Source of the DNA: a virus
Strand: one strand, 5' to 3'
DNA: 21,591 nt
Virus record (IMG/VR): IMGVR_UViG_3300009181_000407
Location: 1-21,591 of that record
In this document: piece by piece, positions 1 to 20,593 of the stretch
Numbering within the stretch: the stretch's first letter is position 1
Layout: each line of letters begins with the position of its first letter
Notes under the pieces: generated by a model
What the model was told of the DNA's origin: nothing
What the model saw: only the letters and a program-made list of their open reading frames with translations
The model's database searches: none
Translations under genes and position numbers: made by a program

Positions 1-2
1 CA

Positions 3-311: not shown

Positions 312-2909
312 ATGCCATTACAGAAACTGATGCTCAAGCCCGGTGTGAACAAGGAGAACACCCGTTACACCAACGAAGGTGGGTGGTATGACTGCGACAA
401 GATTCGCTTCCGCCAAGGCACGCCTGAGAAGATCGGTGGCTGGTCACAGATTTCTGGTTATACCTATGTAGGCACATGCCGTTCCCTCTGGTCATGGGCT
501 TCTCTAAGCGGGATAGTCTATGTTGGGGTTGGCACTTATCTAAAGTTTTATGTAGAGCAAGGTGGGGCGTATAACGACATTACGCCGATTCGGTCTTTTG
601 TAACGCTTAGTGGTCCATTTGCAGCGACGAACGGCTCAACTACAGTTACTGTTACTAGCGCATCACATGGTGCATCTACAGGCGACTACGTTAACTTCCT
701 TGGTGCAGTGGCACTTAGTACGCAGACATTTACTAGGTCTACAGCAACTAACTTCATCGTAACTACAGCACTTGCGGCTAACACTCCAGTTATTCTTACT
801 GTGTCTTCGGGTGGCACATTACCTACGGGCTTGGCTGAGAACACACAGTACTACATATTGGTTGTGTCTGGCACTACAGTTAACTTCGCTAACACAATAG
901 GTGGCGCGGCTATTTCTACGTCCACTGCTGGTACTGGTACGTTCTCTTTATATGTAAACAGCGGGTTGACGGCGGAGGTACTAAATAGCAGTTTTGCTAT
1001 TACTAAGATTAACGCTAACTCATTCACTATTACTACCCCCGTTGCGGCTGGGGTGTACGATACTGGCAATGGTGGTACAACGGTTAACACCAACTACGAG
1101 ATACCTGTCGGATATGACTCATCACAGCCATTAACCGGTTGGGGCGCAGGTGCTTGGGGTTCTGGCTCTTGGGGTTCAGGGCAGGCCAGCGTTGCTCCCG
1201 CTCGTATCTGGTATCAAAACAACTTTGGTCAAGATTTAATCTTTGGCTACCGTGGTGGCCCGCTCTACTACTGGAACGCTTACATTACCCCCAACGGGCT
1301 TAATGTCACTATAACGATTAACTCCCAGACTGTTTCTGCTGTTGACACTGCTACGGAGTACATCACGTTCTCCACGGCTATTGCGGCTAATACACCTGTT
1401 AAATTTACCTCGACCACTTCACTGCCTGCACCCTTGGTGTCTGGCACTGTTTACTACATAGTTAACCCTGTTGCAGCTACGGCACAACTTGCGCTTACCG
1501 TTGGCGGAGCGGCTATTAACTTGACTAGCGCAGGTTCTGGGACTATCACGATTTACACCCCAGCGACGTTTACAACCATTAGCACTTTGACTAATGCTAC
1601 GGCTATCCAGATAGTTAGTACTGGCACCGTGCCGACTGGGATGACTATTGGTACAACGTACTATGTAAACAACTTTGCATCTAATGTTTTCAATATCTCT
1701 GCTACATACGGCGGGGACTTAATCGTATTGACTGGAACGCAGACAGGTACGCAGACTATCTACCCGCACGGTATCCCTGTAACTTCTATGTACGGGGCGT
1801 CGGATGTGCCAGCCTATGTAAACAACATGATGGTGTCGGACGCAAGTAGATTTACTATTTGTTTTGGCTGTACGCCTTACGGCGGCGGTGACTTAGACCC
1901 CATGCTGATTCGTTGGTCTGACCAAGAATCCGTAACTAACTGGACGCCAGCGGTTACTAACCAAGCCGGATTCATCCGCCTATCGCACGGCTCACAGATT
2001 CTTACTGCGGTGCAGACTCGCCAAGAGATTGTTGTGTTCACGGATACATCCCTATATTCTTTGCAGTATCTCGGTGCGCCGTTTATCTGGGGCACACAAC
2101 TCTTAGGTGACAACATCTCCCTAGCCGGATATAACACTGCCATCATTGCATCTGGTGTTATTTACTGGATGGGCGTGGACAAGTTCTATAAATACGATGG
2201 TAGAACTCAGACTCTGCGCTGCGATTTGCGTCAGTTTATTTATGGTGACATTAACTTAGATCAACAAGCGCAGTTCTTTGCCGGAACTAACGAAGGTTTT
2301 AATGAAGTCTGGTGGTTCTATTGCACTTCTGGCTCTACAACTATTGACCGCTATGTAACTTATAACTACGCTGAAGATGTGTGGGCTTATGGGGCTATGG
2401 CTAGAACAGCATGGTTAGATTCTGGTTTGATTACTAACCCTATCGCGGCTACCTATGTAAACAATCTTGTCTACCATGAGTACGGTATTGACGATAGCAC
2501 TACAGGAACCGCTCTTCCTATTGAGGCGTATATCACTTCGTCCGAGTTTGACATTGGTGATGGGCACAACTTTGGATTTATCTGGCGTTTAATCCCTGAC
2601 CTTACGTTCCGTGGCTCGTCTACTACTGGGGCTACTCCGCAGGTTACGTTCTATATGTTGCCAATGCAGAACTCTGGTTCTGGGTATAACGACCCTGTTG
2701 AGTCTGGCAATCAGTCAGTTGGTGGCACAAGTTATGCCAATGTAGCCCGTATCGGTACATACACGGTAGATCAGTTTACTGGTCAGGTCTACACACGGGT
2801 GCGTGGACGGCAGATGGCTATGAAGATTTCTTCTAATCAAGTTGGAACGCAGTGGCAGTTGGGCGCTCCTCGTATTGACATTCGCCCTGACGGTAGGCGA
2901 GGCGGTTAA
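312..2909 (+). CDS. Tail-hub / packaged-DNA stabilisation protein (P22 gp10-like) with FCCH-like repeats
   Basis: An 865-residue virion protein. The N-terminus (residues 1-60, with TRYTNEGGWYDCDKIRFRQG and PEKIGGW) and the region 500-700 (RWSDQESVTNW, GSQILTAVQTRQEIVVFTD, GVDKFYKYDGR, NEVWWFYC) look like the beta-propeller tail-hub proteins that plug the portal in short-tailed phages. P22 gp10 has 472 residues; the extra length here comes from inserts. Three copies of an FCCH-like module (ending GG-A-x-n-GTG, with a central YY[IV]) lie at about 155-215, 358-416 and 427-484. An outer module at 101-136 plus 217-264 is split by the first copy. A Trp/Gly stretch (GWGAGAWGSGSWGSG) is at 276-290. 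AGGAT lies just upstream of the ATG, and the stop shares one base with the next start (TAATG). The hub role is inferred from similarity and gene position. Confidence 0.75.
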   Translation: MPLQKLMLKPGVNKENTRYTNEGGWYDCDKIRFRQGTPEKIGGWSQISGYTYVGTCRSLWSWASLSGIVYVGVGTYLKFYVEQGGAYNDITPIRSFVTLSGPFAATNGSTTVTVTSASHGASTGDYVNFLGAVALSTQTFTRSTATNFIVTTALAANTPVILTVSSGGTLPTGLAENTQYYILVVSGTTVNFANTIGGAAISTSTAGTGTFSLYVNSGLTAEVLNSSFAITKINANSFTITTPVAAGVYDTGNGGTTVNTNYEIPVGYDSSQPLTGWGAGAWGSGSWGSGQASVAPARIWYQNNFGQDLIFGYRGGPLYYWNAYITPNGLNVTITINSQTVSAVDTATEYITFSTAIAANTPVKFTSTTSLPAPLVSGTVYYIVNPVAATAQLALTVGGAAINLTSAGSGTITIYTPATFTTISTLTNATAIQIVSTGTVPTGMTIGTTYYVNNFASNVFNISATYGGDLIVLTGTQTGTQTIYPHGIPVTSMYGASDVPAYVNNMMVSDASRFTICFGCTPYGGGDLDPMLIRWSDQESVTNWTPAVTNQAGFIRLSHGSQILTAVQTRQEIVVFTDTSLYSLQYLGAPFIWGTQLLGDNISLAGYNTAIIASGVIYWMGVDKFYKYDGRTQTLRCDLRQFIYGDINLDQQAQFFAGTNEGFNEVWWFYCTSGSTTIDRYVTYNYAEDVWAYGAMARTAWLDSGLITNPIAATYVNNLVYHEYGIDDSTTGTALPIEAYITSSEFDIGDGHNFGFIWRLIPDLTFRGSSTTGATPQVTFYMLPMQNSGSGYNDPVESGNQSVGGTSYANVARIGTYTVDQFTGQVYTRVRGRQMAMKISSNQVGTQWQLGAPRIDIRPDGRRGG

Positions 2910-3601: not shown

Positions 3602-5026
3602 ATGGCTGATTTCGGTATAGGTGAATATTTACTAGCTGAGGCAGCCGGAGATGCTGCTATTGCCGATATGGTAGGTTTGCCTGTTGCGGATTTAATCGGT
3701 GTTGGTGCCCTTGAAGCTGGTGCTGGTGCTGGTGCCCTAACTGCCGCCGAAGCCGCTAGTGCCGCTGGTGCTACCGAAGCTGGTACTGCGCTAACTGCCG
3801 CCGATTTAGTTGCTTCCGGGGCTGTCCCAGATATAGGCTCTACAGTTGCTTCCGGTGCATTTGATGGCGCTCAAGGTATTGATGCTCTTGGTCAACGGGT
3901 TGTAGACCCTGCAACGCAGGCTATTAATGCAGGAAACGCAGCCAACGTCACGGGCGACCCTTATATGCAAAAGGTAGGGTTTGAAGGTACAAATCCTTTT
4001 CAAGCGCCGACTGAGTTTAATGACTTCCAAGACCCAAGTAAGTTAGTCCAAGGCGCACCACAAGGCATAGATCAACTGCAGACTGGCATGCAGCAGGTTG
4101 GGCAGAATGTACCCCAGAATGATTTAGTTACTAAAAAACTTGCAGAAATGGGGATTGAGCCTGTTGGAAGAGCCCCCGGTTTACTAGAACCCGGTTCTAA
4201 AATGGGTGGATTTACTGTTGGTGCCGATGGTATGCTGTATAACAGCGCCGAACTTAGTAAAGCAGGTATAGCCACTGCCGGTACAGGTGCTACTGCGGAT
4301 ACTGGTTTAGGTATTGGCAAGCTTCTCTCTGGGAGCACCATGGGTATCCCTAATAAGTATTTAGCGATGGCTGGCACTTCGGCTGTAGCAGGTCCTTTGA
4401 TTAAAAAAGCGCTTACACCTGATCCAAGATACGGTATTAATCCGCAAGCCTCAGAGCCTTATAGTGGCCCACTTTCTAAATTTAACTACAACCCAGCTAC
4501 TTATACACCTGCGCCTAGTCCAGCACCAAATTACTACACCCCACAATACAAACGCTATGCGGCAGGTGGAACGACTAAATCCGATTCAATGTCGGATTTA
4601 ATGGGTAGCGGAGATTCGATGGAACAATATTTGTCGGATTATCAGTCTGACCCTGCTAGTGTTTATCAAAAGGCTAAGGATGGTGACTACAACGCTATGC
4701 TGGCATTGAACAAGATACGTAAAACACCTAACGAGAACTACGCCGCAGGTGGTATCGCCCAACTAGCCGTAGGCGGTAAGTTGCTTCGCGGGCGAGGCGA
4801 CGGCATGAGTGACAGCATTAACGCGAATATTTCTGGTAAGCGTGAGGCTCGACTTGCAGACGGCGAGTTTGTAATTCCCGCAGATGTTGTTAGCCACTTA
4901 GGTAACGGTTCTACCGATGCCGGTGCAAAACAGTTGTATAGCATGATGGACAAGGTACGAAATGCCCGCACGGGGCGTAAGTCTCAAGGACGTCAGATAA
5001 CACCGCAAAAATATATGCCAGCATGA
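3602..5026 (+). CDS. Unrecognised virion-module protein with conserved 'GDGMSDSI…RLADGEFVIPADVV' C-terminus
   Basis: A 474-residue protein of unknown function. Residues 10-70 are an Ala/Gly-rich repetitive segment (EAGAGAGALTAAEAASAAGA). Residues 220-265 are Gly/Ala-rich with weak hydrophobic character. Residues 297-317 are Pro/Tyr-rich. YAAGG occurs at 319-323 and 380-384. The C-terminal 80 residues look like a folded, conserved domain: GDGMSDSI at 399-406, ARLADGEFVIPADVVSHLG from 416, a basic helix, and the ending QKYMPA. I recall this C-terminal signature from proteins of other aquatic phages without an assigned role. Its place between the tail hub and the ejection proteins suggests an internal or tail-associated virion component (inference). 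The stop overlaps the next start as ATGA. Confidence 0.6.
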   Translation: MADFGIGEYLLAEAAGDAAIADMVGLPVADLIGVGALEAGAGAGALTAAEAASAAGATEAGTALTAADLVASGAVPDIGSTVASGAFDGAQGIDALGQRVVDPATQAINAGNAANVTGDPYMQKVGFEGTNPFQAPTEFNDFQDPSKLVQGAPQGIDQLQTGMQQVGQNVPQNDLVTKKLAEMGIEPVGRAPGLLEPGSKMGGFTVGADGMLYNSAELSKAGIATAGTGATADTGLGIGKLLSGSTMGIPNKYLAMAGTSAVAGPLIKKALTPDPRYGINPQASEPYSGPLSKFNYNPATYTPAPSPAPNYYTPQYKRYAAGGTTKSDSMSDLMGSGDSMEQYLSDYQSDPASVYQKAKDGDYNAMLALNKIRKTPNENYAAGGIAQLAVGGKLLRGRGDGMSDSINANISGKREARLADGEFVIPADVVSHLGNGSTDAGAKQLYSMMDKVRNARTGRKSQGRQITPQKYMPA

Positions 5027-5436
5027 CACTAACGGTTAAGTATGTCCAGAAAGAACATGCCGCTCAAATGTGGCCTCTTGTCGAAACATATATAAAGTCA
5101 GCCATGGAGCATGGGCATGGGGACTACACACTTGACCAAGTGAAACTGCTAGTATGTATGGGTCAATGGCTTTTGATGGTAGCGATGGATGAGGATAGCA
5201 AGATTCATGGGGCGGCAACGGCATCGTTCATGAATTACCCAAATGACAGGGTTGGGTTTATCACTTTCATGGGCGGCAAGTTAATTACTAATCAAGAAAC
5301 TTTTAAACAGATGTGCGATATTTTGAAACAGCGTGGGGCGACTAAGGTGCAAGGCATGGCTAGACCTGCGACCGCTCGTTTGTGGAAAAGATATGGTTTT
5401 AATGAGCGTTCCACTTTAGTGGAAACAAGGATTTAG
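5023..5436 (+). CDS. GNAT-like acetyltransferase-fold protein, positional counterpart of T7 gp13
   Basis: A 137-residue protein. The layout fits a GNAT fold: an N-terminal helix pair (residues 10-45), strands at 50-58 (LLMVAMDED) and 76-85 (VGFITFMGG), a helix at 90-104 (QETFKQMCDILKQRG), and the characteristic end ATARLWKRYGFNE at 106-118. The acetyl-CoA pyrophosphate loop (R/Q-x-x-G-x-G/A) is not recognisable, so catalytic activity is doubtful. T7 gp13, which comes before the ejection proteins gp14-16, belongs to a GNAT-like family, and this gene precedes three proteins in the same order. Its start overlaps the previous stop (ATGA). Its stop codon lies within the AGGAGG site of the next gene. 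Confidence 0.6.
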   Translation: MTLTVKYVQKEHAAQMWPLVETYIKSAMEHGHGDYTLDQVKLLVCMGQWLLMVAMDEDSKIHGAATASFMNYPNDRVGFITFMGGKLITNQETFKQMCDILKQRGATKVQGMARPATARLWKRYGFNERSTLVETRI

Positions 5437-5445: not shown

Positions 5446-6216
5446 ATGGCAGATCCGGTATCACAAACGATTACGCAAACAAATATTCCCGAATACGCAA
5501 GACCGTACGTCGAGTCAATGCTGGGCGCAACTCAGCAGCAACTATTTAACACAACGCCTAACGCAGCGGGTGGTTACGACATATCAGGTGTTAAGCCATA
5601 TCAGGCTTATAGCGACGATCCAAGCAGATATTTTGCCGATTTCAGCCCGATGCAACAACAGGCATTTGGACAGGCTGGTCCGGGCGGGTTTGGTAATACT
5701 GTTGGTCAGTACATGAACCCATACCTACAGATGTCGCTGGCCCCCCAGTTAGCAGAGGCTAACCGTGCTTACGATATTAGTGGTATGAACGCTAATGCGC
5801 AGGCTACTCGGGCAGGTGCTTTTGGTGGTGGTCGTCAGGCTTTGATGCAGTCCGAAAACGAACGCAACCGTAACATGGGTATCGCAGGTATTCTTGGTCA
5901 AGGCTACAACAATGCCTTTCAAGGTGCAACAAATCAGTACAACACCGGCATAGGCCAACTGATGCAGATGGGTGGTCAACAGCAACAACTTGAACAAAAT
6001 AAGATTAACCAAGCGATACAGAACTATTCTATGGGTCAGCAGTACCCACAACAACAACTTGCATTCATGAACTCCATGCTTAGGGGTTTACCATTACAGA
6101 CAGCCACAACATCTGCTTATCAAGCACCTCCTAGCACTGCGTCACAAGTTGCTGGTTTAGGCACTGCCGGTATTGCTGGTCTGGGTCTGTATAACACTAT
6201 GAATAGAGGTTACTAA
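5446..6216 (+). CDS. Internal virion / DNA-ejection protein, T7 gp14-like
   Basis: A 256-residue Gln/Asn/Gly-rich protein. Residues 120-134 (ATRAGAFGGGRQALM) carry the motif A-G-A-F-G-G-x-R typical of small phage ejection proteins of the T7 gp14 type. It is followed by a helical stretch with repeated YN/NQ pairs (residues 145-205) and a Gln run (QQQQLEQ). Residues 235-250 (VAGLGTAGIAGLGLYN) form a Gly-rich hydrophobic segment that could insert in a membrane. In T7, gp14 leaves the virion and forms the outer-membrane part of the DNA channel. The same role here rests on the motif and on the gene order 13-14-15-16. One base separates its stop from the next start, and the next gene's Shine-Dalgarno AGAGGT lies inside this gene. 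Confidence 0.65.
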   Translation: MADPVSQTITQTNIPEYARPYVESMLGATQQQLFNTTPNAAGGYDISGVKPYQAYSDDPSRYFADFSPMQQQAFGQAGPGGFGNTVGQYMNPYLQMSLAPQLAEANRAYDISGMNANAQATRAGAFGGGRQALMQSENERNRNMGIAGILGQGYNNAFQGATNQYNTGIGQLMQMGGQQQQLEQNKINQAIQNYSMGQQYPQQQLAFMNSMLRGLPLQTATTSAYQAPPSTASQVAGLGTAGIAGLGLYNTMNRGY

Positions 6217-6217
6217 T

Positions 6218-7645
6218 ATGATTGGTGATTTACTACCCACTTTGGCAAGAGCCCAAAGCGAAAGCATCCAGCAACTACAGCGTTCTATACAGAGCGGGGT
6301 TGTACCTGCTTATATTGGTGTGCCTTTACTCCAAAAGAAGTTAAGTGAGCGTCAGCAAGCCCAAGCGTTGTTATTGGGACAACAGCAACAAGGGCAACCC
6401 CCTATTGCTGAACAAGTGATGCAACAGGCTAATCAAGTTACACAGCCACAACAAGCACCACAAATGCCTCAGATGCCGCCACAACAGATGGCTCAGGCAC
6501 CACAAGGCATTGACGCCGCGCCAAGTAATATGCCTATTGAATACGCTGGTGGTGGCATCGTTGCGTTTGCCGATAACGAAGATCAGCCTGTTAGCCGTTA
6601 TATGCCGTCTACTCGTCAGTATGACGATTCTTATGTACCGTCTGATCGTGAAGGCATGCAAAAAACTGGGTTCTTGGATTGGTTAATCCCTGAATACAAG
6701 AAACCAGAAGATATGTCCGAAGAGGAATACGAAAAAAGTAAAAGGCCTGCATATACTGCACCAAAGGCGGGTCCATTAACTCCACCTGCGGCGGCGGCTC
6801 CCGGTTCCCGTAGAGAAACAGCACCAGCACCCGGCACCGGCAGCGTTGCGCCTCCTGTTGTTGAGAAGAAACCAGAAGAAGAAAAGAAAAAACCTCCATT
6901 GGTAGTTGAACGAGGCCCTTCAAAACCTGCTGGACCCGCACCTTCTCAAATTCCCGGCGCTCCTCCTTCAGATGGCATTGCTGATTTTATGAAGAAGCGC
7001 GAGACTAGCGACGAGAATCTTAAGAAGTTAATTCTTGGTGATCCACAAGACAGAGACAAACAACTTCAAATCCAGACGCTCTTGAAAATTATGAAGGGTG
7101 GACTAAAAACCTATGGCGGAACTTCGCCGTATGCGAACGTCAATGTCGGTGCTGGCGCAGAAGAAGCTGTTGGCGGTATTGGTGAACTTTATGCACAACA
7201 AGAAGCCAACAAAGAAAAACGCGTTGGTCAACTTGTGGCCCTCGGTCTTAAAGGCCAAGAACTTGATGCTGAACTTGTCAAACTTGGTATCACTAAAGAC
7301 TACTACGACTCCCATAGAAAATTGTTTGAAGCTCAAGCAGATTATTATCGTCGTCGTCCAAGCACTACTGGAAGTGCCGGATTGGGGTATGTAGGGCAAG
7401 CGCAATCAAAAGAGTTGATGCAAGAATACTTGGGCTATATGGCTAGACCTCAATCTGCTCCATTTTTTGCGCAATTACCAAAAGATGTTCAAAGATACCT
7501 TAAAGCTGATCCTAGTAGCCCTTCCTATGCTAATGCTATGGGCGAATTTGACCGATACGCAAAAGCGTATAGGGATCGGCAGGCGGACTTCATAAGACAA
7601 AATTCCGCTAAATTTCAACAACCACCCTACAACACAGAACCATAA
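6218..7645 (+). CDS. Internal virion protein, positional counterpart of T7 gp15
   Basis: A 475-residue protein with no recognised enzyme domain. The N-terminus (residues 15-50, LQRSIQSGVVPAYIGVPLLQKK) is a conserved-looking helical segment. Residues 54-95 are Gln/Pro-rich. YAGGGIVAFAD lies at 109-119. Residues 174-250 are Pro/Ala/Lys-rich and probably disordered. Residues 255-475 are helical and charged (DENLKKLILGDPQDRDKQL, AEEAVGGIGELYAQQEANKEKRVGQLVALGL) and probably form the folded core. It lies between the gp14-like gene and the giant gp16-like gene, where T7 has gp15, but I see no clear sequence match to gp15. The stop TAA overlaps the AAGGAT ribosome binding site of the next gene. Confidence 0.55.
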   Translation: MIGDLLPTLARAQSESIQQLQRSIQSGVVPAYIGVPLLQKKLSERQQAQALLLGQQQQGQPPIAEQVMQQANQVTQPQQAPQMPQMPPQQMAQAPQGIDAAPSNMPIEYAGGGIVAFADNEDQPVSRYMPSTRQYDDSYVPSDREGMQKTGFLDWLIPEYKKPEDMSEEEYEKSKRPAYTAPKAGPLTPPAAAAPGSRRETAPAPGTGSVAPPVVEKKPEEEKKKPPLVVERGPSKPAGPAPSQIPGAPPSDGIADFMKKRETSDENLKKLILGDPQDRDKQLQIQTLLKIMKGGLKTYGGTSPYANVNVGAGAEEAVGGIGELYAQQEANKEKRVGQLVALGLKGQELDAELVKLGITKDYYDSHRKLFEAQADYYRRRPSTTGSAGLGYVGQAQSKELMQEYLGYMARPQSAPFFAQLPKDVQRYLKADPSSPSYANAMGEFDRYAKAYRDRQADFIRQNSAKFQQPPYNTEP

Positions 7646-7654
7646 GGATAAAAC

Positions 7655-10600
7655 ATGGCACGGGTAAATATTCCGGGAGTAGGCTATGTGTCGTTCTCAG
7701 ATAAGTTGTCGGACGAACAAATTCTTGCCCAAGCGCAAGTTATACAAGAGCGGGCGCAACAGCCTTTATACGACCCTAGAGATTTACCAACTAGCGAACT
7801 TATTAAAGGCGGTTTTTCCCGTGGGCTAGAAGGTCTTAAAGGTACAGTTTTTGATTTACTTCCTGCGCTTGGCGCGTCCATGTTTGGAAACGACAAATAC
7901 GCCAAAGAGCAACTAAAAGAGTTTTCAGACCGCATGGCTGCGGCTGAGTTAGAAAATCCCGCTGCATATAAGTCTTACAAAGATATTAAAGGTAGAGGTA
8001 TTGGTGGCGCGTTTGACTTTGCCGCTGAAACATTTGGTGAACTCGGTCCTGATATTGCCTCCTTTATGTTTGGTGTGGGTGCTGGTACTGTTGTTGGTAA
8101 GAAAGTTGCTGCTAAGGGTTTAGAAAAAATTGCCGCAGAACAAGCCGCTAAAGTAGCAGCCAAGAATGGTTTAACTAAAGAAGCCGAAAGTAAATACGCT
8201 GAACGTCTATTAACCCGCGCTAAAGACGGCATCATTGGTAAACAGGCGGCAGAGCAAGGCGCTAAGGTTGGTCTTGATACTGGCTTGTGGGGCACATCAC
8301 TTGGCACCAACGTGCCTGATGTATTTAATAGTATCTATCAAGATACTGGCACGTTAAACCCCCTCCTTGCGTTAACGATTGGACCGCTGGTAGCAGCGTT
8401 AGATACATACTTGCCTAGCAAGATGTTAAAACAACTTGGCCCATCTGGTAAGGCCCGTGTTGCTGCTGAGATGCTTCAGAAGTCTTCGGTTGTACCTATA
8501 AATTGGAAGAAAACATTTGCTGGTGAAGTGCTAAAAACTGCTGGTGGTGAAGGTCTAACTGAAGGCGCACAACAAGTTTTACAAATCCTTGCTTCTCAAA
8601 TAGCAGGGGATAAAGACCCGTTCTTTTCAGAGAAAAACGTAGACGGCATCATTAACTCAGCCCTTAAGGGTTTTGTAGGCGGTGGTACATACGGCATGCC
8701 CGGCGGAGCCTTGGAAGCTAGGCGGATTAAAACCGAGCGTAATAGACAAATTGAAGAGCGTAAGGCTCAGCAAACAACCACACAGCAAACAAAACAAAAC
8801 TTACAACTAGGGTACGCACCGTTTACCCCTGTAGTTTTCCCAGACGGTTCAGTTGCTAATACACAAGAAGAACTAGACGCTTATCGGGCACAACAGTTCC
8901 AACAACAATACGCGCCACAACCTGCTGGTAAACAGATGCCCTTGCAGTTGGGCATGTCCGCTACACCTACTATGCCGGTAACGCCACAAGGCGAGGCATA
9001 TTCAGACATCCAATCAATGCGTGCGGCACAAGAACAAGCCGCTGCTGAAGCAGAGCAACGTGCGTTCCAAGAGAGAACCGCCCCACAACAAGTTGAACAG
9101 CAGACTCGAGAGATGTTCCCAGAAGCACTTGGGCTTGCTCAGTCACAGCAACGTGTTGGTGCGTTACCTACTCAAACTCAAGAAGCTGCAGCCGAACCAG
9201 CACCAGCCGAATTTGGTACAGTGCTTGATGCTTCTGTCTTGCAAAGAACTGGTCTCAAACCACAGTCTGGTTTCTTTAAGCAACTTCTTAACAAGGACAT
9301 GTCTAATCCAGAGGACCAAGCCGCTGTACGTGCCGTACTTGTACAAATAAGAACCAACCCAAACTTATCTGAGTCTACGAAGCAAGCCATCGAGGGGGTG
9401 GCTATGCAAGCGTTTGGCGCACTCGCTAAACAACAAGAGATGTTTGGCCCCCGTGGAGGCATACTTAAAGGAGCCGATGTTGGAAGAACAATTTCTAGAC
9501 CTGTCAGTGAACCAACTGGAACAAGCGTTCCAACTACTGTCGAACCCACAAGTATTGACCAAACCGCCGAAGGAGTTGAGCCGTCTGAGCAGGGGGGAGT
9601 GGGAAGTGCTGTCCGATCTGCTTTCGAGCCTGCAGTTAGAGAAGAAGTACAGCCAGATACATTAACCCAAGAAGCTCCCGCTCAAGAAGATGCACTTGCC
9701 GTTGCCACTAGAGTTGCCGCGCTCAGTGATGAAGAAATACTTAGCAACATGGCACAGTCCAAGACGTTGCTCAATGCTGTCATTGACGAACTTGGCATAG
9801 AAATACCCGGTCACACTAAGAATCGCAACGACAAGAACGCTCTTGTAACGAAGAAATACTACATACAAGAGCACTTAAAAGGTCTGCAAGAGGCGCCAGC
9901 GCCGGAGGAACAAGATGCTATCCAAGCCGAACTGGATGCGAAACTGGGCAAAGAAACTGCGCCTGTTGTGGCGCGAGTCGCTCCCGCTAAGGAGGGAACT
10001 ACTGAAGGAGTTTCTAAAGGAACTGATAAAGGCGGCGCTAAGGCAGTGGCTGAACCTGCTGCTAAAACTACCCGTGCCAAAAAGAGTAAAGCACCGAGCC
10101 CTGCTAAGACTACTGAAACTGTAGATGTTGATAAGTTACTAGAAGAAGCGGATGAGATTCCGCTAGAGATTCCTAAAGCCGCTAAATTTGATGTTAGTGG
10201 TGGCTATACAAACTTTGCCAAGAAGGATATAGAGAACATTGACGACAGCATCGCAGTAACAGATTTGTTGCGTACCAAAAAACTAACCGAAATTGCTAAA
10301 GCTGCAAAAACTTATTTTGGCAAGATGCCTCGTTTGGTAGATAACCTGCTGAACATGGCATTTGATATTGTTTATGAAACCCCACAATTTAAACGCACAG
10401 ATGAATCTTCTGAAGAAGCACAGTTCTTCAAAGGTATGAATGGTGAAAAAGCTAATGATGCGTTTAAGTGGGTGCAGAACAACCTAAGTCCAGAAACTAA
10501 CAAAGCGATACGTGAATTTATTCGTCGTTTTGAAATTGCACGGGATACGACTAACGACCAACAGTTTATGGATTTGATTCGGGACGGTATTTCCGGCACC

Positions 10601-13600
10601 AGAGAAAACTACGACGATGAAACCGTCAAGAGTTATATCAGAGCGCAAGAAGCAGATGCCAAGACTAGGAAACTCCTTGACAATGCTGTATCTCGCCTAG
10701 CACACGGACTGCACCCAATCATCATTTCTGCGCTCCAAGCAGGTGACTTACAAACCGCGTTGCGCTTGTTGTCTGCTAGTTCAGACACATTTGTATCTAC
10801 TACCGCTGCTAAGTTAGCAGGTGTTAGCCCCGATACTAAAGTAGTTATAGAGGAAGACCTCGTTGATGAGAACGGTAAACGCGTTCCGGGCTTCTTTAAC
10901 CCACAGACTAATACCATTCACTTAGACTCTGTGACCGGTATGAATAGCCACGTGTTACTGCATGAGGCTGGGCACTCTGCTATGTCGCATGAGTTGGATA
11001 ATCCTAATAGTGCGTTGGCTCGCCAACTACAACAGATACTTGACAAAGTAAGAGATAGCCTAGGTTCTGCTTATGGCGCTACTGACGTACATGAGTTTGC
11101 TGCTGAGGCTTGGGCAAATAAAGAATTCAGAGCAAAGTTGCAGTCTATGTACCCTGATGGTGGCAACATAACTGCATGGGATAAATTTACCCGTGCTGTA
11201 GTTAACTTCTTCCGTCGTTTAACTGGTAAAGAATCAAAGCCGTTAACTTCTGCCTACGATGAAGTTGACCGTATATTGTCTGCAATCGTGTCTCCTGCAC
11301 CTGATTCACGCAACGCTGGTGTGCTGTACGCACAGGCGGCTAACAAGAGCGCCCAAGTATTTTCATTTACCGACAGAATGATTAACGCTATTCCAATGTT
11401 GGGTGAGGCTCAAAAAGACGCATTGAGTGGTGGTATCGCTCGCGGCTCTGAAGCAACTAAGTCAGCGTTGTTTTCTGTGTTGCCTATGCACGCATTGGGT
11501 GAAGTTGCAGACAAAGTATTCCCCGGCCTTGGCTCAAGGTTTAACACGCTTATCAACGAACGTGCCGGTTACGAGAACAAGTTAAACCGTGGTATCGACG
11601 CTGTTGTTACTGAAGCTAAACATGCTATCAATACTCGTCCTGAGCAACGCGAAGCGTTCAACCGTGTTGTTAACGACAGCACGATGGCTGAGGTAGACCC
11701 AACTAAACCAATGTCTGCTTATAAAGAGAAGGAAGACATTGAAGAGTGGAAGAGCCTTAACGCACAGTACAACAAACTAGATAAAGTTTGGAAAGACTTG
11801 TATGTCACTATGCGTGATGCAAACAAGAAGATGTATAACGAAGTCAAGGCGGCAATCGAAGCACGTATTGACGAGACTGGGCTAGATGGCAAGACCAAAA
11901 TATTGGTTAAACAAGACATCATGAAAAAACTTGCCGAGCAAGGCATGATTGACCCATACTTTGCACTCGGTCGTGAAGGTAAGTTTTGGTTAGCCTCCGA
12001 CTACACAGATAAGAACGGACAAAAGCAATTTACTGTTGAGGCATTTAAGTCTCCACGCGAGCGTGCGCGTCGCCAAGAAGAACTTAAAACGCTAGACCCA
12101 AAGGCACGGGTTGATGTTTACTCTAACGTAGATCAAATCAACTTCCGTAATGCACCGTCTGGCTCGTTTGTAAACAGCGTCTTGAAGATCATGGAAACCA
12201 ACGGTGTGCCTAAGCAGGCTATCGACGAGACCATGCGGTTGTTCATTACTACTTTGCCTGAGACTGCGTTTGCTAAGTCGTTCCAAAAACGTAAAGGCAC
12301 CGCTGGCGCTTTGACCGATACGATTGGTGTGTTTGAACGCAAAATGCGTAGCACTTCTCATCAAGTGTCCAACATGTTGTACAACCCCAAATTGACTGGG
12401 GTAGTCGATAGCATGACCCTAAAAAGCGAGGAAGCCGCCAAGAGCGGTAAAGATAATGAACTTGAAGCGCGTTATGTAAACGAGTTCAAGAAGCACCTAG
12501 ATTACGTACGTAACCCAACCAAAAATGATATTGGTAGTATTCTGACTTCCGGCGCATTCTTCTACACGCTGGGCTTCAACATCTCTTCCGCTATTGTTAA
12601 CATGGCTAACGTGCCGATGATTGTGGCACCGTACCTCAACGGAAAATACGCTGATAGTAATGTTTCGGGCGCTATTGGTAATGCTTCTAAGGTATTTCTT
12701 GGTAGTGGTACTAAAGCCACTATGCCCGTACTCGGTGCAGATGGTAGGACTTCAATGATGGATGTGATGCCGTCTATTGCTAACTACGCACCGGATTCGG
12801 CTATGGGTAAGAAGTACGCAACTCTTATCCGTATTGCTGACGACCAAGGTCAGTTGAATCGTTCCCAGTTGTATGAAATTATCAACGGAGATACTCGCAC
12901 AGGCACGCTTGCCAAAATAAATGCTATGGCTGGTTGGGCTTTCCATCACGGCGAGCGTATGAACCGTGAAGTAACCATGATTGCGGCGTATGACCTTGAG
13001 TTGGCTAAACTTAAAAAACAAGGCATCACAGGTGAAGCGGCTGAAGTTCAAGCTGCCAACAATGCAATCTACACAGCAGAACTTACTAACGGTGGTATAT
13101 CTGCAGCCGCTGCGCCACGTATAGCGCAAAGTTCATTTGGTAAAGTGCTATTCATGTACAAGCGCTACGGCGTTTCGATGTACTACATGTTGTTTAAGAC
13201 AGCCAAGGATGCCCTTGCAAATACCGACCTATCTCCAGCCGAAAGAAAAGCCGCATGGAAACAACTTGGTGGTATTTTTGGTATGACCGCGCTCATGGCG
13301 GGTGCTCAAGGTTTGCCGTTGTACGGCTTGGCATCTATGGTCTACAGTTTGTTCTGTGATGACGACGATGATGATTTAGATACCGTGACTCGCAAGTACA
13401 TGGGTGAGTTTATGTTTAAGGGTCCGATTGAGTATTTCACTAATCTATCTATTGCCAGCCGTATCAGTTTGAGTGATTTGATTGTTCGGGATACCAAAGG
13501 GGGTTCTACCGCAGGTAGTTTCTCTCAGCAACTACTTGCCGCAATCGGTGGCCCGGTAGTCGGTGTAGGTGATCGTATCCAAAGAGGTTATAGCAAGATG

Positions 13601-14098
13601 GCTGAAGGCCACTTCATGCGCGGTCTTGAAGACATACTTCCTGCTTTTGCGGCTAACGTGCTTAAAGGCGCAAGGTATTTAACCGAAGGCACTACGACTC
13701 TGCGTAATGACCCAATCACTGGAGACGTCAGCGTATGGAATGCAGGTGCTCAAGCATTTGGATTTGCGCCAGCCGATTACACCCGTCAGATTGAAGAAAA
13801 CTCTCGCCTAAAAGGTATTGATAAGTACACCAATCAGACAAGCACTAAATTGCGTCAAAGATGGAACCTTGCACGTACCTTGGGAGACACGGGTGGTATG
13901 GAAGAGGCACGTAATGATTTGCTAGAACTTGGCTCTAAACATCCCGGACTCAAGCTAAATGCAGGCACTATAGAGAGCTTACTGCAAGACTCTAAGCGCG
14001 AGTACGACAGAGCCACTAAAGAGATGGCGCACGGGGTGCGATTCTCTAAGAAGATGACTAGTGAACTCAAATCCCGTTCGGCTGAATACGATCAGTAA
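7655..14098 (+). CDS. Giant internal virion protein with HEAGH zinc-metallopeptidase domain and LPD-like C-terminus
   Basis: A 2147-residue protein, about 30% of the window. Residues 1-25 (MARVNIPGVGYVSFSDKLSD) resemble the start of other large phage ejection proteins. Hydrophobic segments lie at 130-148 and 234-249. Residues 370-560 are Gln/Glu-rich, and 600-860 are acidic, Ala/Pro/Thr-rich and probably disordered. The metallopeptidase domain covers roughly 1060-1190, with zinc ligands H1103 and H1107, catalytic E1104 in HEAGH, and a third ligand probably E1147 or E1151 in HEFAAEAW. Helical regions follow. From about 1640 to 2147 the sequence resembles a large-polyvalent-protein-associated domain (SSFGKVLFMYKRYGVSMYY near 1825), with a six-Asp run at 1902-1907. 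It takes the place of T7 gp16, but I see no lytic transglycosylase. Ejection with the DNA and cleavage of a host protein or sibling virion protein is inference. Confidence 0.7.
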   Translation: MARVNIPGVGYVSFSDKLSDEQILAQAQVIQERAQQPLYDPRDLPTSELIKGGFSRGLEGLKGTVFDLLPALGASMFGNDKYAKEQLKEFSDRMAAAELENPAAYKSYKDIKGRGIGGAFDFAAETFGELGPDIASFMFGVGAGTVVGKKVAAKGLEKIAAEQAAKVAAKNGLTKEAESKYAERLLTRAKDGIIGKQAAEQGAKVGLDTGLWGTSLGTNVPDVFNSIYQDTGTLNPLLALTIGPLVAALDTYLPSKMLKQLGPSGKARVAAEMLQKSSVVPINWKKTFAGEVLKTAGGEGLTEGAQQVLQILASQIAGDKDPFFSEKNVDGIINSALKGFVGGGTYGMPGGALEARRIKTERNRQIEERKAQQTTTQQTKQNLQLGYAPFTPVVFPDGSVANTQEELDAYRAQQFQQQYAPQPAGKQMPLQLGMSATPTMPVTPQGEAYSDIQSMRAAQEQAAAEAEQRAFQERTAPQQVEQQTREMFPEALGLAQSQQRVGALPTQTQEAAAEPAPAEFGTVLDASVLQRTGLKPQSGFFKQLLNKDMSNPEDQAAVRAVLVQIRTNPNLSESTKQAIEGVAMQAFGALAKQQEMFGPRGGILKGADVGRTISRPVSEPTGTSVPTTVEPTSIDQTAEGVEPSEQGGVGSAVRSAFEPAVREEVQPDTLTQEAPAQEDALAVATRVAALSDEEILSNMAQSKTLLNAVIDELGIEIPGHTKNRNDKNALVTKKYYIQEHLKGLQEAPAPEEQDAIQAELDAKLGKETAPVVARVAPAKEGTTEGVSKGTDKGGAKAVAEPAAKTTRAKKSKAPSPAKTTETVDVDKLLEEADEIPLEIPKAAKFDVSGGYTNFAKKDIENIDDSIAVTDLLRTKKLTEIAKAAKTYFGKMPRLVDNLLNMAFDIVYETPQFKRTDESSEEAQFFKGMNGEKANDAFKWVQNNLSPETNKAIREFIRRFEIARDTTNDQQFMDLIRDGISGTRENYDDETVKSYIRAQEADAKTRKLLDNAVSRLAHGLHPIIISALQAGDLQTALRLLSASSDTFVSTTAAKLAGVSPDTKVVIEEDLVDENGKRVPGFFNPQTNTIHLDSVTGMNSHVLLHEAGHSAMSHELDNPNSALARQLQQILDKVRDSLGSAYGATDVHEFAAEAWANKEFRAKLQSMYPDGGNITAWDKFTRAVVNFFRRLTGKESKPLTSAYDEVDRILSAIVSPAPDSRNAGVLYAQAANKSAQVFSFTDRMINAIPMLGEAQKDALSGGIARGSEATKSALFSVLPMHALGEVADKVFPGLGSRFNTLINERAGYENKLNRGIDAVVTEAKHAINTRPEQREAFNRVVNDSTMAEVDPTKPMSAYKEKEDIEEWKSLNAQYNKLDKVWKDLYVTMRDANKKMYNEVKAAIEARIDETGLDGKTKILVKQDIMKKLAEQGMIDPYFALGREGKFWLASDYTDKNGQKQFTVEAFKSPRERARRQEELKTLDPKARVDVYSNVDQINFRNAPSGSFVNSVLKIMETNGVPKQAIDETMRLFITTLPETAFAKSFQKRKGTAGALTDTIGVFERKMRSTSHQVSNMLYNPKLTGVVDSMTLKSEEAAKSGKDNELEARYVNEFKKHLDYVRNPTKNDIGSILTSGAFFYTLGFNISSAIVNMANVPMIVAPYLNGKYADSNVSGAIGNASKVFLGSGTKATMPVLGADGRTSMMDVMPSIANYAPDSAMGKKYATLIRIADDQGQLNRSQLYEIINGDTRTGTLAKINAMAGWAFHHGERMNREVTMIAAYDLELAKLKKQGITGEAAEVQAANNAIYTAELTNGGISAAAAPRIAQSSFGKVLFMYKRYGVSMYYMLFKTAKDALANTDLSPAERKAAWKQLGGIFGMTALMAGAQGLPLYGLASMVYSLFCDDDDDDLDTVTRKYMGEFMFKGPIEYFTNLSIASRISLSDLIVRDTKGGSTAGSFSQQLLAAIGGPVVGVGDRIQRGYSKMAEGHFMRGLEDILPAFAANVLKGARYLTEGTTTLRNDPITGDVSVWNAGAQAFGFAPADYTRQIEENSRLKGIDKYTNQTSTKLRQRWNLARTLGDTGGMEEARNDLLELGSKHPGLKLNAGTIESLLQDSKREYDRATKEMAHGVRFSKKMTSELKSRSAEYDQ

Positions 14099-14189: not shown

Positions 14190-14462
14190 TTACAGAATTC
14201 TCCAAAAGCGCATACCTAACTTCCCGCTTTCTATACGCTCGTAGCCTTTAAGCGTTAAATTTTTATAATCTGCAATCTTTTGCACTTGTTTACTCAAGAT
14301 TGGTAAGTTAACAGCGGGTACAAAAAACGACATCCCTATATCTAGGGAGTCCCAATTTATGCCAATAACCACACCGTCAGGGCAGACTTGCCCTTCACGC
14401 ATCACCTTCAAGAACGGCTTTGTGACCTGCGGCGGCTGCGATTTCTTCTTCAACGTCGTCAT
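14190..14462 (-). CDS. Small conserved-looking hypothetical protein at the end of the replication operon
   Basis: A 90-residue protein of unknown function. After a basic, flexible N-terminus (MTTLKKKSQPPQVTKP) the sequence reads like a compact alpha/beta fold: WDSLDIGMSFFVPA, then a helix LSKQVQKIADYKNL, then KGYERIESGKLGMRFWRIL. The Shine-Dalgarno AAGGA lies 8 nt before the ATG at 14462, which supports this start although it overlaps the end of the primase-helicase gene by 68 nt. An alternative start at 14402 (MREGQ) would reduce the overlap to 8 nt, but its Shine-Dalgarno spacing is only about 2 nt. It is the last gene before the leftward terminator. I recall similar ORFs in other phages without an assigned role. 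Confidence 0.6.
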   Translation of the reverse strand: MTTLKKKSQPPQVTKPFLKVMREGQVCPDGVVIGINWDSLDIGMSFFVPAVNLPILSKQVQKIADYKNLTLKGYERIESGKLGMRFWRIL

Positions 14463-17256
14463 CTAAAAAGTCCTTGCAGTTAATCCATAGCACATCTAGG
14501 GACGGTAGATTCATACGGGTGCCTTTGCCCATACGCTTCTTCTCTATCTTTGACTTGGAACGTCCACGTTTTAGCGCATCGACAAAGCCTTCGTAGTTGA
14601 CCTGCTTCTTTACGCACCAATCCCTAAGTGGACTGAGGTAGATGTATAGCATCTTTATGTCGTATTCGTAGCGTGCCATGTACGACACTCTCGGCGTAGC
14701 GTCCGGAATAATCAAGTGGTCTGCGTCGTCCCGCTTCAATGTGCGGGAATCATCCGTGCTCTTAATACGCAGGATATTGTTGTAGTTCTCAGCCAAGAAG
14801 TTAGTGAGCGTTGTCTCGGCGTCGACGTCCATAGATTTGACTTGATCTTGTACCCCGCTAACTACACCCTTGAGCCAAGTGACCACAGCCTTGAGGTCAT
14901 AGTCAACTAAGCCAGCCCGCTTTGCCGCCATCAACCCCATGATGCCATCTGCCGCTAAGACCGAATGAAACCGTGCGTCAGGTCCAAACCCGCACATCTG
15001 ATCTAGTTTGTGTTGGGTAGATTTGTACAAAGCCTTGATACCAGCAATGTCCTGCATCACGTACTGCATGTATGGCAGATATGCGTGCCCGTAGTTGTTT
15101 AGAAGTGCGTCACTTAATATGTCAGTATCGACCTTGTTGAGTCCGGGGACGGGTTTGGCACGTACTTCCAACAAACGCATGGCTTCACCTTTAGGCAGAG
15201 CCTTGTAGGTTCCCATCTTCTCCATCATGGATGAGTTGCCTGTACTAACTGCCGCTTGTTTCCATGGCTCGCCACGGATTCGCTCTGAGTTGGAGTTCGG
15301 CCCCATGCGATTGCGTTGCATACCTGATGTGTACTGATACAGAAAGTCGCTCAACTCCTTGGCGGTGGAGTTAGTCATCTCGTCCATAGGTAGGAAGATG
15401 TTGTTGTAGAGTTCCGCACGGTTCATCTTGGATGCCATAGTGTCGGATTCTTTAAGCACAATCTTGGTCGGGTCGCCCCAAATACTAGCCCCCGCATACA
15501 ACGCAGTTGTCTTGCCGATTCCTGAGTCCGGACTGAATATGTGCATCAACGCCCCATTTACAGGGGTGAAGTCGGTAAAGATAGAGCCAAAAGATAGTCC
15601 GATTACAAACTGGTGCATCTCCATTCCGGGGCGGTTGTAGAAGTTCATGGCTTCTTTCCATGCCTCTAGCGTTCCTTTGGGTTGAAATGCGTGAAACAGA
15701 TGTGCTGTAGCTGATGAGGGTGGATTGTGGTCTACCCGATCTGCACGAATTTCTTTATCCCCTAGCACGAATGCTTCGTGCTTATCATCTATCCAACCAA
15801 ATTGTCTGTGAGCCGTGTCCGCTCTTGCGTTAAATTGCATGTGGTTTACCCATGTTGTTATATATGACATTAGTTCGTCGGTTCTAATCATCGCCACGCC
15901 GTTGGATGACATGTGCTTACGCAGTTCATCCTTAGAGGTAGCAGACGCAAGAGGTATCGTAAATTCCCGCACCCCGTCACGAGGAAGATGTAGCCTTACG
16001 ACTACCGCCTCACCCACAGCAGAGTCCAGTAACCTACGAGTTACGTACATATCGTTGTGATAGATCATCACTTCGATCTCGTCTTCTTGCTTGATAACCC
16101 GCTTAAAGATACCTCCGTTCTTCCCCCTGAAATAAGGTTCGGGATACTTCGGTATAACGTATGTTTGTGTGTGCCCTTGATTCACATTCGCCGGGGCATC
16201 TTCTACGATGTTATCTTCCTCAGTTGCTTCTTGCACTTCTCGACCAAGCACAATCGGCGATTTGATTGAGCCTTTGCTTGGGCATCCGTCGCAACCTTTG
16301 GGGTTGTATTCTTCAAACTTAGCGCAGGTATAAGGGCCGCCCTTGATACCACGTACTTTCCTGTCAGCAAATTGTGGGCTGTACTCAGGGTGCCCACTAG
16401 AAATCTTGTCAATAGCCTTGTCTGCGTCTACGCAAAATTTAGCGATAGATAAGCCTGCTCTCCACATCGGTTCCGACATGGTTGCTTGGTTCTCGTAAAT
16501 ATATCCTAGTTGTTGGCATCCTTCTCCCTTCACAGTTCTAATCATGATGGTCTTAAACCGATTTGTGTAGTTCCCAAGGATTGCCTTGGTTACTTCGTCC
16601 ATCTCTCCACGTGGGATGTAGGGCCGCCGCTCAATGAGTGGGTCACCAATAACATCTTTTAGTGTGTCAAGCTCATACGGTACGGAACCCTGGCCTAGTA
16701 AACTGACAGGGCGTGCCACGTCGTTTTTGTAGTTTAGAGTCCCCGGAACCCGTAAGATTCGTACCGCATCCGCCGTTACTACATGGTCGATGTGCAAGTC
16801 ATGGTCGTCACACATACTCTTTAACTTCTCAGCCAAAGGCAACCATGTTTCACGTGAAACGGGTTCAGTAAATGCCCAGTAGACGTGCACACCCCCACCG
16901 GAGTTAACCAGCGTAGGCTTCGGCATCTTGGTCGCCTTGCAGAACTGTTTTAAGGCAGTAATCGCTTCGGCTTGTGTCGCGTATGGTTTATCTTCTCCGC
17001 AGTCTATGTCTAGGAACAACGATTTCAGTTGTTTGACGTTAGGTGCTTTGCGTGACTTGCCATCCTTGAATGTTGCTAATGCGTAGTACGCATCGTACCC
17101 CTCGTTTTTCAAATTCTCGGCTACTGCTACTGCGTCTTCCACTGTGCGGAAGAACTTTTGTACAGGCTTGTCTGACCCATTTTTTAGCCCAACTATGCAG
17201 TAGTATCCGTCGTCCCCGAGGACTTGCTGTAAAAATTCTAAATTGTCCATAGCCAC
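14395..17256 (-). CDS. Primase-helicase fusion: AEP-type primase plus DUF927-like AAA+/SF3-type helicase
   Basis: A 953-residue replication enzyme. Residues 1-200 form an archaeo-eukaryotic primase (Prim-Pol) domain: the metal-binding pair D83/D85 in FLDIDCG, the histidine motif SGGGVHVYW at 119-127, and RILRVPGTLNYKN at 166-178. A possible zinc site uses C311, C322 and C325 (GCDGCPSKG). Residues 370-540 lead into the ATPase, with Walker A SPDSGIGKTT (K582, T583) and Walker B FLPMDEM (D625, E626). The C-terminus (from about 790) has small helical domains. It should unwind DNA and make primers at the phage fork. The start is GTG at 17256 or ATG at 17250. Both are close to a weak GGGTGG site, and I cannot decide between them. 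A perfect 14-bp parS-like palindrome lies within codons V133-T137. Confidence 0.85.
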   Translation of the reverse strand: MAMDNLEFLQQVLGDDGYYCIVGLKNGSDKPVQKFFRTVEDAVAVAENLKNEGYDAYYALATFKDGKSRKAPNVKQLKSLFLDIDCGEDKPYATQAEAITALKQFCKATKMPKPTLVNSGGGVHVYWAFTEPVSRETWLPLAEKLKSMCDDHDLHIDHVVTADAVRILRVPGTLNYKNDVARPVSLLGQGSVPYELDTLKDVIGDPLIERRPYIPRGEMDEVTKAILGNYTNRFKTIMIRTVKGEGCQQLGYIYENQATMSEPMWRAGLSIAKFCVDADKAIDKISSGHPEYSPQFADRKVRGIKGGPYTCAKFEEYNPKGCDGCPSKGSIKSPIVLGREVQEATEEDNIVEDAPANVNQGHTQTYVIPKYPEPYFRGKNGGIFKRVIKQEDEIEVMIYHNDMYVTRRLLDSAVGEAVVVRLHLPRDGVREFTIPLASATSKDELRKHMSSNGVAMIRTDELMSYITTWVNHMQFNARADTAHRQFGWIDDKHEAFVLGDKEIRADRVDHNPPSSATAHLFHAFQPKGTLEAWKEAMNFYNRPGMEMHQFVIGLSFGSIFTDFTPVNGALMHIFSPDSGIGKTTALYAGASIWGDPTKIVLKESDTMASKMNRAELYNNIFLPMDEMTNSTAKELSDFLYQYTSGMQRNRMGPNSNSERIRGEPWKQAAVSTGNSSMMEKMGTYKALPKGEAMRLLEVRAKPVPGLNKVDTDILSDALLNNYGHAYLPYMQYVMQDIAGIKALYKSTQHKLDQMCGFGPDARFHSVLAADGIMGLMAAKRAGLVDYDLKAVVTWLKGVVSGVQDQVKSMDVDAETTLTNFLAENYNNILRIKSTDDSRTLKRDDADHLIIPDATPRVSYMARYEYDIKMLYIYLSPLRDWCVKKQVNYEGFVDALKRGRSKSKIEKKRMGKGTRMNLPSLDVLWINCKDFLDDDVEEEIAAAAGHKAVLEGDA
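16846..16861. promoter_or_regulatory. parS-like palindrome (ParB-binding-site core) inside the primase-helicase gene
   Basis: The 14-bp palindrome GTTTCACGTGAAAC (16847-16860) is identical to the core of the chromosomal parS consensus TGTTTCACGTGAAACA known from Bacillus, Caulobacter and most bacteria. Including flanks, 15 of 16 positions match. It encodes V-S-R-E-T in the primase domain. No parA or parB gene is visible in the window, so ParB would have to come from the host or from elsewhere in the phage genome. The identity is seen directly. Function is unproven. Confidence 0.5.
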
Positions 17257-20569: not shown

Positions 20570-20573
20570 GATT

Positions 20574-20578
20574 CTCCT
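20574..20578 (-). promoter_or_regulatory. Ribosome binding site deciding the helicase start
   Basis: AGGAG on the minus strand, followed by AATC and then ATG at 20569. It makes the ATG, not the in-frame GTG 24 bases upstream, the likely start. The 13 bases AAAACAGGAGAAT here are identical to the leader of the coiled-coil gene. Confidence 0.6.
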
Positions 20579-20593
20579 GTTTTTATAAAGCAC

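What the first reader, a model, noticed from the sequence alone, without database searches (positions are those of the whole stretch)
7655..14098. Giant 2147-residue virion protein carrying a complete HEAGH metallopeptidase motif
The gp16-position protein has no visible transglycosylase but has an intact gluzincin-like motif (H1103, E1104, H1107, then E1147 or E1151), membrane-like segments near the N-terminus, and a C-terminus resembling large-polyvalent-protein domains. It may be an ejected effector that cleaves a host defence protein, a cell-envelope protein or its own virion partners.
Basis: partly seen in the sequence, partly recalled or inferred. Interest (0 to 1): 0.6.

Follow-up and report, generated by a model that had tools for sequence, protein, structure and literature searches.

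The report
Metalloprotease domain in phage ejection protein
A 2147-residue protein that this podovirus probably carries in its particle and ejects into the bacterium contains an intact zinc-protease domain of a known phage type; close relatives have replaced that domain with a different zinc-protease-like one at the same spot, so a protease there seems to matter, although what it cuts is unknown.

Summary
ORF 7655-14098 (2147 aa) has one HExxH, HEAGH at 1103-1107 (0.01 expected by composition). It is the active-site helix of a real zincin domain (about 1031-1212). Among 57 relatives picked by their C-terminus alone, H1103, E1104, H1107, Y1140, E1147 and E1151 are invariant. AlphaFold2 gives a confident core, and profiles match solved ejection proteins (PhiM1 gp48, E 2e-28), anthrax lethal factor (2e-7) and weakly an N4-type virion RNA polymerase. 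E1147 is the predicted third zinc ligand.

The domain sits directly before a ~900-residue helical module (LPD39, 'DarB-like' C-terminus). All 64 sufficiently complete module-bearing proteins examined have HExxH just ahead of it (65 inside that interval, 1 elsewhere in 98,040 aa). In sister phages with 63% identical C-termini the protease segment has been replaced by a sequence-unrelated zincin-like one. This favours selection for catalysis.

It is a new member of the phage polyvalent/ejection-protein zincins (Iyer 2017). Most likely it acts after ejection, in cis or on its ejection partners; a host target is the main rival and was not tested. The PhiM1 gp48 domain published as 'endolysin-like' is better read as this metallopeptidase. 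No host, virion or activity data exist for this phage.

The parts
7655..14098 (+). 2147-aa giant ejection-type protein
   Evidence: homologues
7655..8674 (+). N-terminal module, residues 1-340, with two moderately hydrophobic stretches (130-148, 231-249)
   Evidence: no PDB or phage-collection match
8675..10234 (+). residues 341-860, Q/A/P/E-rich, fast-evolving linker (identity 22-39% in distant relatives, dN/dS 0.36 against L012)
10235..10744 (+). residues 861-1030, conserved region preceding the protease (its C-terminal part, from residue 980, is predicted helical)
10745..11290 (+). zincin metallopeptidase domain, residues about 1031-1212
10961..10975 (+). HEAGH, residues 1103-1107: predicted zinc ligands H1103 and H1107, general base E1104
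11072..11107 (+). YGATDVHEFAAE, residues 1140-1151: Y1140 (predicted oxyanion-hole Tyr), E1147 (predicted third zinc ligand), E1151 (second shell)
11291..11332 (+). junction motif SPAPDSRNAGVLYA, residues 1213-1226: hinge or candidate cleavage site
11438..11881 (+). LPD39, residues 1262-1409
11441..14095 (+). C-terminal helical module, residues 1263-2147, shared with DarB-like/PLxRFG giants
6218..7645 (+). 475-aa protein next to the giant, candidate ejection partner (P22 gp20 position)
5446..6216 (+). 256-aa protein, candidate ejection partner (P22 gp7 position)
312..2909 (+). P22 gp10-type packaged-DNA stabilisation protein; places the giant in a podovirus head/tail cassette

Best explanation
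The protein is a podovirus ejection protein. It is built as an N-terminal module with two hydrophobic stretches, a long variable linker, a catalytically competent zincin endopeptidase of the phage polyvalent/ejection clade (lethal-factor/PPEP-like active site), and a ~900-residue helical C-terminal module. H1103, H1107 and E1147 bind zinc, E1104 activates water and Y1140 stabilises the oxyanion. The protein is stored in the head (inferred) and leaves ahead of the DNA (inferred). The protease then cuts within its own polypeptide, near the junction or linker, or cuts a partner ejection protein, so separating the C-terminal module from the N-terminal part during or after ejection (inferred). Shown by computation: the domain, its intact conserved active site, its fixed position before the C-terminal module, and exchange of the protease segment. 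Not shown: zinc binding, proteolysis, substrate, timing, or presence in virions of this phage.
For: Active site: a scan by the second motif alone found 74 loci; 73 have HExxH 43-102 residues upstream in the same ORF and the 74th is cut off there. Of the C-terminal-module set, all 57 with this zincin type keep H, E, H, Y, G, E1147, F, E1151. Fold: core pLDDT 90-98, three strands, HExxH helix, then a helix with E1147, as described for polyvalent zincins (PMC5512222). The Tyr-Glu spacing of 7 equals PPEP-3 Tyr190/Glu197. Homology: 8vb2 E 2e-28, 9sfn 1e-20, lethal factor 2e-7, N4-type vRNAP 0.0017; N4 C1 hhalign E 5e-6; viral fold library, probability 1.0 to internal virion proteins. Selection: the domain core is the best-conserved region in distant relatives (45-52% versus 32-34% for the C-terminal module and 22-29% for the linker); dN/dS 0.07. 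Position: 64 of 64 module-bearing proteins with more than 300 aa ahead of the module have HExxH within 400 aa before it; 65 inside versus 1 outside in 98,040 aa. Exchange: L091-L093 share primase (74-77%), SNF2 helicase (85-89%), N-terminus (38-46%) and C-terminus (62-64%), but the middle has no BLAST match and carries HEAIH...EEAVAEAF (hhalign probability 52). A junction motif [SA]PAPxxR lies between protease and module in 21 of 29 non-redundant proteins (background 0.09 per 210 aa).
Against: No experiment shows cleavage. N4 vRNAP, which has a homologous domain, is packaged unprocessed (stated in PMC5512222), and in PhiM1 gp48 the domain sits resolved within the virion ejectosome (PMC11440229), so cutting before ejection is unlikely there. 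This protein has no recognisable N-terminal enzyme for the protease to release, which weakens the 'release of payload' logic. The junction motif travels with the protease segment and is absent from distant members (Crassvirales, PhiM1), so it may only be a structural end of the domain. Two isolates with the C-terminal module (Vibrio phage douglas 12A4, Agrobacterium phage Atu_ph08) have no HExxH.
Confidence: 0.45

Rival explanations
1. Injected effector: the same zincin is active but its substrate is a host protein (envelope, transcription or defence) met on arrival.
For: Active-site conservation and exchange between zincin clades fit changing targets as well as self-cleavage; host targeting is one option offered in PMC5512222; one related giant also has a PBECR3 nuclease domain.
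Against: One domain type occurs in phages of very different hosts (Bacteroidota crassviruses, gammaproteobacterial podoviruses); no defence-library hit; a fixed position before the C-terminal module is not required for a host effector.
Confidence: 0.27
2. Processing during assembly: the domain trims the giant or head proteins before or inside the capsid, as proposed for P1 DdrB.
For: P1 DdrB is processed before packaging (PMC5512222); P22 gp7 loses 20 N-terminal residues, though through a host protease (record note).
Against: N4 vRNAP is packaged unprocessed (PMC5512222); the PhiM1 gp48 domain is resolved in the virion (PMC11440229).
Confidence: 0.13
3. Structural use only: the zincin fold is kept as scaffold or DNA-contact element of the ejectosome and proteolysis is not used.
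For: In PhiM1 the domain lies in the ejectosome beside the DNA path (PMC11440229); in N4 C1 packs on the polymerase (PMC12633501).
Against: All catalytic residues are invariant in 57 relatives, and a sequence-unrelated zincin-like segment replaces it with HExxH kept.
Confidence: 0.1
4. Peptidoglycan hydrolase, as proposed for the homologous PhiM1 gp48 domain.
For: PMC11440229 calls it endolysin/exotransglycosidase-like from BLASTP and DALI; it occupies a T7 gp16-like slot; metallo-endopeptidases that cut peptidoglycan exist (general knowledge).
Against: The profile places it with zincins (lethal factor, N4 C1); no muramidase or SLT family matches.
Confidence: 0.05

Closest known systems
Zincin-like MPTase domains of phage polyvalent proteins (Iyer et al. 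2017, PMC5512222)
   Same: Three-strand core, HExxH helix, second helix with Glu; in giant phage proteins next to LPD domains and virion genes.
   Different: Only one recognisable enzyme domain here; almost always placed before one specific C-terminal module. Which of the paper's 12 clades it belongs to was not determined.
PhiM1 gp48 tetrameric ejection protein (PDB 8vb2, PMC11440229)
   Same: Homologous zincin domain (E 2e-28) with LHEAAH and HEF motif.
   Different: 1263 aa with another C-terminus; its authors called the domain endolysin-like.
N4 virion RNA polymerase C1 domain (PMC12633501)
   Same: HExxH domain before a large helical C-terminal domain, with a membrane-inserting N-terminal domain; homology E 5e-6.
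   Different: N4 carries an RNA polymerase ahead of C1; its C2 has no detectable homology to the C-terminal module here.
Crassvirales RNAP-associated virion protein (phi14:2 g065)
   Same: Homologous zincin domain in a protein noted as found by MS/MS of virions.
   Different: Different flanking regions; infects Bacteroidota.
MEROPS M34: anthrax lethal factor and PPEPs
   Same: Profile match to lethal factor (2e-7), best structural match, Tyr/Glu spacing of 7 as in PPEP-3.
   Different: Phage virion context; no known substrate; structural match is weak (E 0.03, low TM-score).
DarB-like/PLxRFG giants (Klebsiella SopranoGao, Erwinia PEp14, Pseudomonas Skulduggery)
   Same: Same C-terminal module (E < 1e-180).
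   Different: 3695-4914 aa, several annotated as DNA methylase or DarB-like antirestriction; their HExxH segments are not of this zincin type.

Membership tests
Zincin metallopeptidase | HExxH on a helix, with a third ligand on a following helix | tested here: met
   distances not measured
Zincin metallopeptidase | binds zinc and cleaves peptide bonds | not testable with these tools
   needs protein
Phage polyvalent-protein MPTase (Iyer 2017) | zincin in a giant phage protein with LPD domains, near virion genes | tested here: met
Phage polyvalent-protein MPTase (Iyer 2017) | several domains with disparate activities in one polypeptide | tested here: inconclusive
   only the zincin and LPD39/C-terminal module recognised
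M34 (lethal factor/PPEP) | HExxH plus Tyr then Glu 7 residues later | tested here: met
   Y1140/E1147; PPEP-3 Tyr190/Glu197
M34 (lethal factor/PPEP) | significant family-level fold match | tested here: inconclusive
   profile E 2e-7; Foldseek E 0.03, probability 0.94, low TM-score
T7 gp16-type ejection protein | N-terminal lytic transglycosylase | tested here: not met
Podovirus ejection protein (functional class) | encoded as last gene of the head/tail-ejection cassette | tested here: met
Podovirus ejection protein (functional class) | present in virion and ejected | not testable with these tools
   relatives only: phi14:2, PhiM1 (PMC11440229)
N4-type virion RNA polymerase | RNA polymerase domain | tested here: not met
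   no RNAP match; residues 341-860 are a low-complexity linker
N4-type virion RNA polymerase | homologous C2 domain | tested here: not met

The most novel reading that the evidence does not exclude
A general phage ejection device: a replaceable zincin cassette, with its own cleavage peptide at the junction, is kept directly before one C-terminal module, whatever the payload, and self-cleavage there is a required step of ejection.
Probability: 0.3. Interest if true: 0.72.

Novelty: new member of a known kind. Interest (0 to 1): 0.5.

Why it matters
Phage ejection proteins are large and poorly understood, and the role of their zincin domains has been open since they were described in 2017. The protease-segment exchange between closely related phages is a natural experiment arguing that catalysis, not just the fold, is kept. 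The conserved junction peptide gives one precise cleavage test. The result also suggests re-reading a published structure domain (PhiM1 gp48) as a metallopeptidase.

Tried and rejected
A payload enzyme or RNA polymerase in residues 1-1030: none found. Homology of the C-terminal module to N4 C2: none; no fold match in the PDB for its model. A defence-system match: none. Anthrax lethal factor appears only as a database hit; nothing of it was fetched. I suspected that the 137-aa neighbour (5023-5436) is a GNAT acetyltransferase like the one listed beside several DarB-like giants; BLAST gave no support. The first HExxH tests partly select for the zincin: the A1 scan requires its second motif, so E1147 is biased there. 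The C-terminal scan avoids this, but its query came from zincin-bearing proteins and only the best 80 loci were kept, so 64 of 64 is an upper view; named isolates give 5 of 7. Junction disorder cannot be claimed, because most alignment rows end near there.
Full report
Observation. The ORF at 7655-14098 (+) encodes 2147 aa. HEAGH at 1103-1107 is the only H[ED]xxH in it; 0.0115 HExxH are expected from its composition. Pfam finds LPD39 at 1262-1409 and nothing else; PHROGs matches only the last ~800 residues, to 'DarB-like' giants and unnamed families. The window itself is a 21.6-kb virus record.

The domain is real. tblastn of the middle region against phage genomes gave weak hits in unrelated phages that, where annotated, fall mostly in giant or internal virion proteins: Crassvirales, Pectobacterium Phimunavirus and a Variovorax phage. 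Aligned, they share HExxH and a second motif YGxTxxHEF. A scan of IMG/VR with the second motif alone gave 74 loci in ORFs mostly 900-3300 aa long; 73 carry HExxH 43-102 residues upstream in the same frame, and the other starts after that point. In 46 diverse members H, E, H, Y1140, G1141, E1147, F1148 and F1158 are invariant and E1151 is at least 90% conserved.

Structure and homology. AlphaFold2 on that alignment gives pLDDT 90-98 over the core: strands 1062-1066, 1079-1082 and 1087-1091, the HExxH helix 1098-1115 and a helix 1145-1154 with E1147. This is the core described for polyvalent zincins (PMC5512222). The profile finds PhiM1 gp48 (8vb2, E 2e-28), two other phage proteins (9sfn and 23sg), anthrax lethal factor (2e-7) and, weakly, an N4-type virion RNA polymerase (0.0017) in the PDB. 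Foldseek puts lethal factor first in the PDB, with weak scores, and matches phage internal proteins with probability 1.0 in the viral library. Direct comparison with N4 C1 gives hhalign E 5e-6. The Tyr-to-Glu spacing of 7 equals PPEP-3 Tyr190/Glu197, where the Tyr forms the oxyanion hole and the Glu is the third zinc ligand (PMC12828418). I therefore assign E1147 as the third ligand and E1151 to the second shell (inference). Distances were not measurable.

Selection. Against distant relatives the domain core is the best-conserved part (45-52% identity versus 32-34% for the C-terminal module and 22-29% for the linker). Against L012, dN/dS is 0.07 in the domain, 0.12 in the C-terminal module and 0.36 in the linker.

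The partner module. Residues 1263-2147 form a mostly helical module (AlphaFold2 pLDDT 78, pTM 0.73) with no PDB match by sequence or fold. A scan by this module alone found at least 584 relatives in IMG/VR; the best 80 were kept. Of these, 64 ORFs had more than 300 residues ahead of the module, and all 64 have HExxH within 400 residues before it; 57 match this zincin profile and 7 do not. Inside that interval there are 65 HExxH in 29,294 aa; elsewhere 1 in 98,040 aa. After removal of redundancy it is 29 of 29. In the 57, which were not chosen by protease residues, all catalytic positions are invariant. Caveat: the module query came from zincin-bearing proteins. Among seven named isolates with the module, five have an HExxH 150-340 residues before it, none of this profile type; two have none.

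Protease exchange. In L091, L092 and L093 the surrounding genes are clearly the same kind of phage (primase 74-77%, SNF2 helicase 85-89%). The giant's N-terminus (38-46%) and C-terminus (62-64%) are homologous, but the segment holding the protease has no BLAST match to the window. It carries HEAIH...EEAVAEAF instead, only marginally similar by profile (hhalign probability 52, E 1.5e-4). L107 and L108 (HELGH, HELAH) and L136 and L138 (HEIAH) show further types. Replacement with the metal motif kept argues for selection on catalysis. That the replacements are zincins is inferred from motif and position.

Junction. Between protease and module lies [SA]PAPxxR(D/N)AGxLYxA (window 1213-1226), in 21 of 29 non-redundant proteins against a background of 0.09 per 210 residues. 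It is missing where the protease was exchanged, but it lies within the exchanged stretch. It may be a cleavage site, a hinge or the end of the domain.

Context. Upstream are a P22 gp10-type protein and proteins of 256 and 475 aa, in the order of P22 gp7, gp20 and gp16; their homology to the P22 proteins was not shown. No SLT domain was found in the window or five related records, all possibly incomplete.

Mechanism. N4 vRNAP has the same general order: an N-terminal domain that inserts into membrane nanodiscs, a payload, a HExxH domain C1 and a helical C2 (PMC12633501). It is packaged unprocessed (PMC5512222). In PhiM1 the domain is part of the ejectosome in the head (PMC11440229). So action after leaving the head is likeliest. 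A protease kept next to one module across different payloads, hosts and zincin clades fits cutting of the polypeptide itself or of ejection partners (0.45). A host target (0.27), assembly processing (0.13), purely structural use (0.10) and peptidoglycan cutting (0.05) are the alternatives.

Known or new. The zincin domain of phage polyvalent proteins, and the proposal that it self-processes, are published (PMC5512222). This is a new member. What appears additional is the near-constant pairing with this C-terminal module, the protease exchange, the junction motif, and the correction proposed for PhiM1 gp48, whose Asp268-Asp528 domain was read as endolysin/exotransglycosidase-like. I did not find these points in the papers searched, but subscription journals are not covered.

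Noticed in passing
PDB 8vb2 (PhiM1 gp48), residues 258-516: Published as an endolysin/exotransglycosidase-like domain (PMC11440229), but it matches the zincin profile at E 2e-28 with LHEAAH and HEF kept; likely a metallopeptidase.
   Followed up: partly
window 6218-7645 and 7655-8674, versus L003: L003 is 99-100% identical in primase, SNF2 helicase and small genes, yet the 475-aa protein is about 40% and the giant's N-terminus 62% identical: local exchange at the ejection proteins, perhaps partners that change together.
   Followed up: partly
window 3602-5026: 474-aa protein: in L014 and L091 only about 84 residues align (72-74% identity); near its C-terminus it has DGEFVIPADVVSHLGNGSTDAGAKQL. 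Function unknown.
   Followed up: no
window 1-308: Phage lysozyme (PF00959), cut by the window start; not found in five related records, so lysis genes may be exchanged, or the records are incomplete.
   Followed up: no
L172 7891-14445 (Pseudomonas phage Rollin): The homologous giant is annotated in GenBank as OppA oligopeptide-binding protein, probably wrongly; it carries the C-terminal module and an HExxH.
   Followed up: no
window 14395-17256, 19031-20593, 21061-21591 (all minus strand): Convergent replication genes: DUF927 primase/helicase, SNF2 helicase, PD-(D/E)XK nuclease; the primase is closest to that of Pseudomonas phage Rollin (29% over 90%).
   Followed up: no
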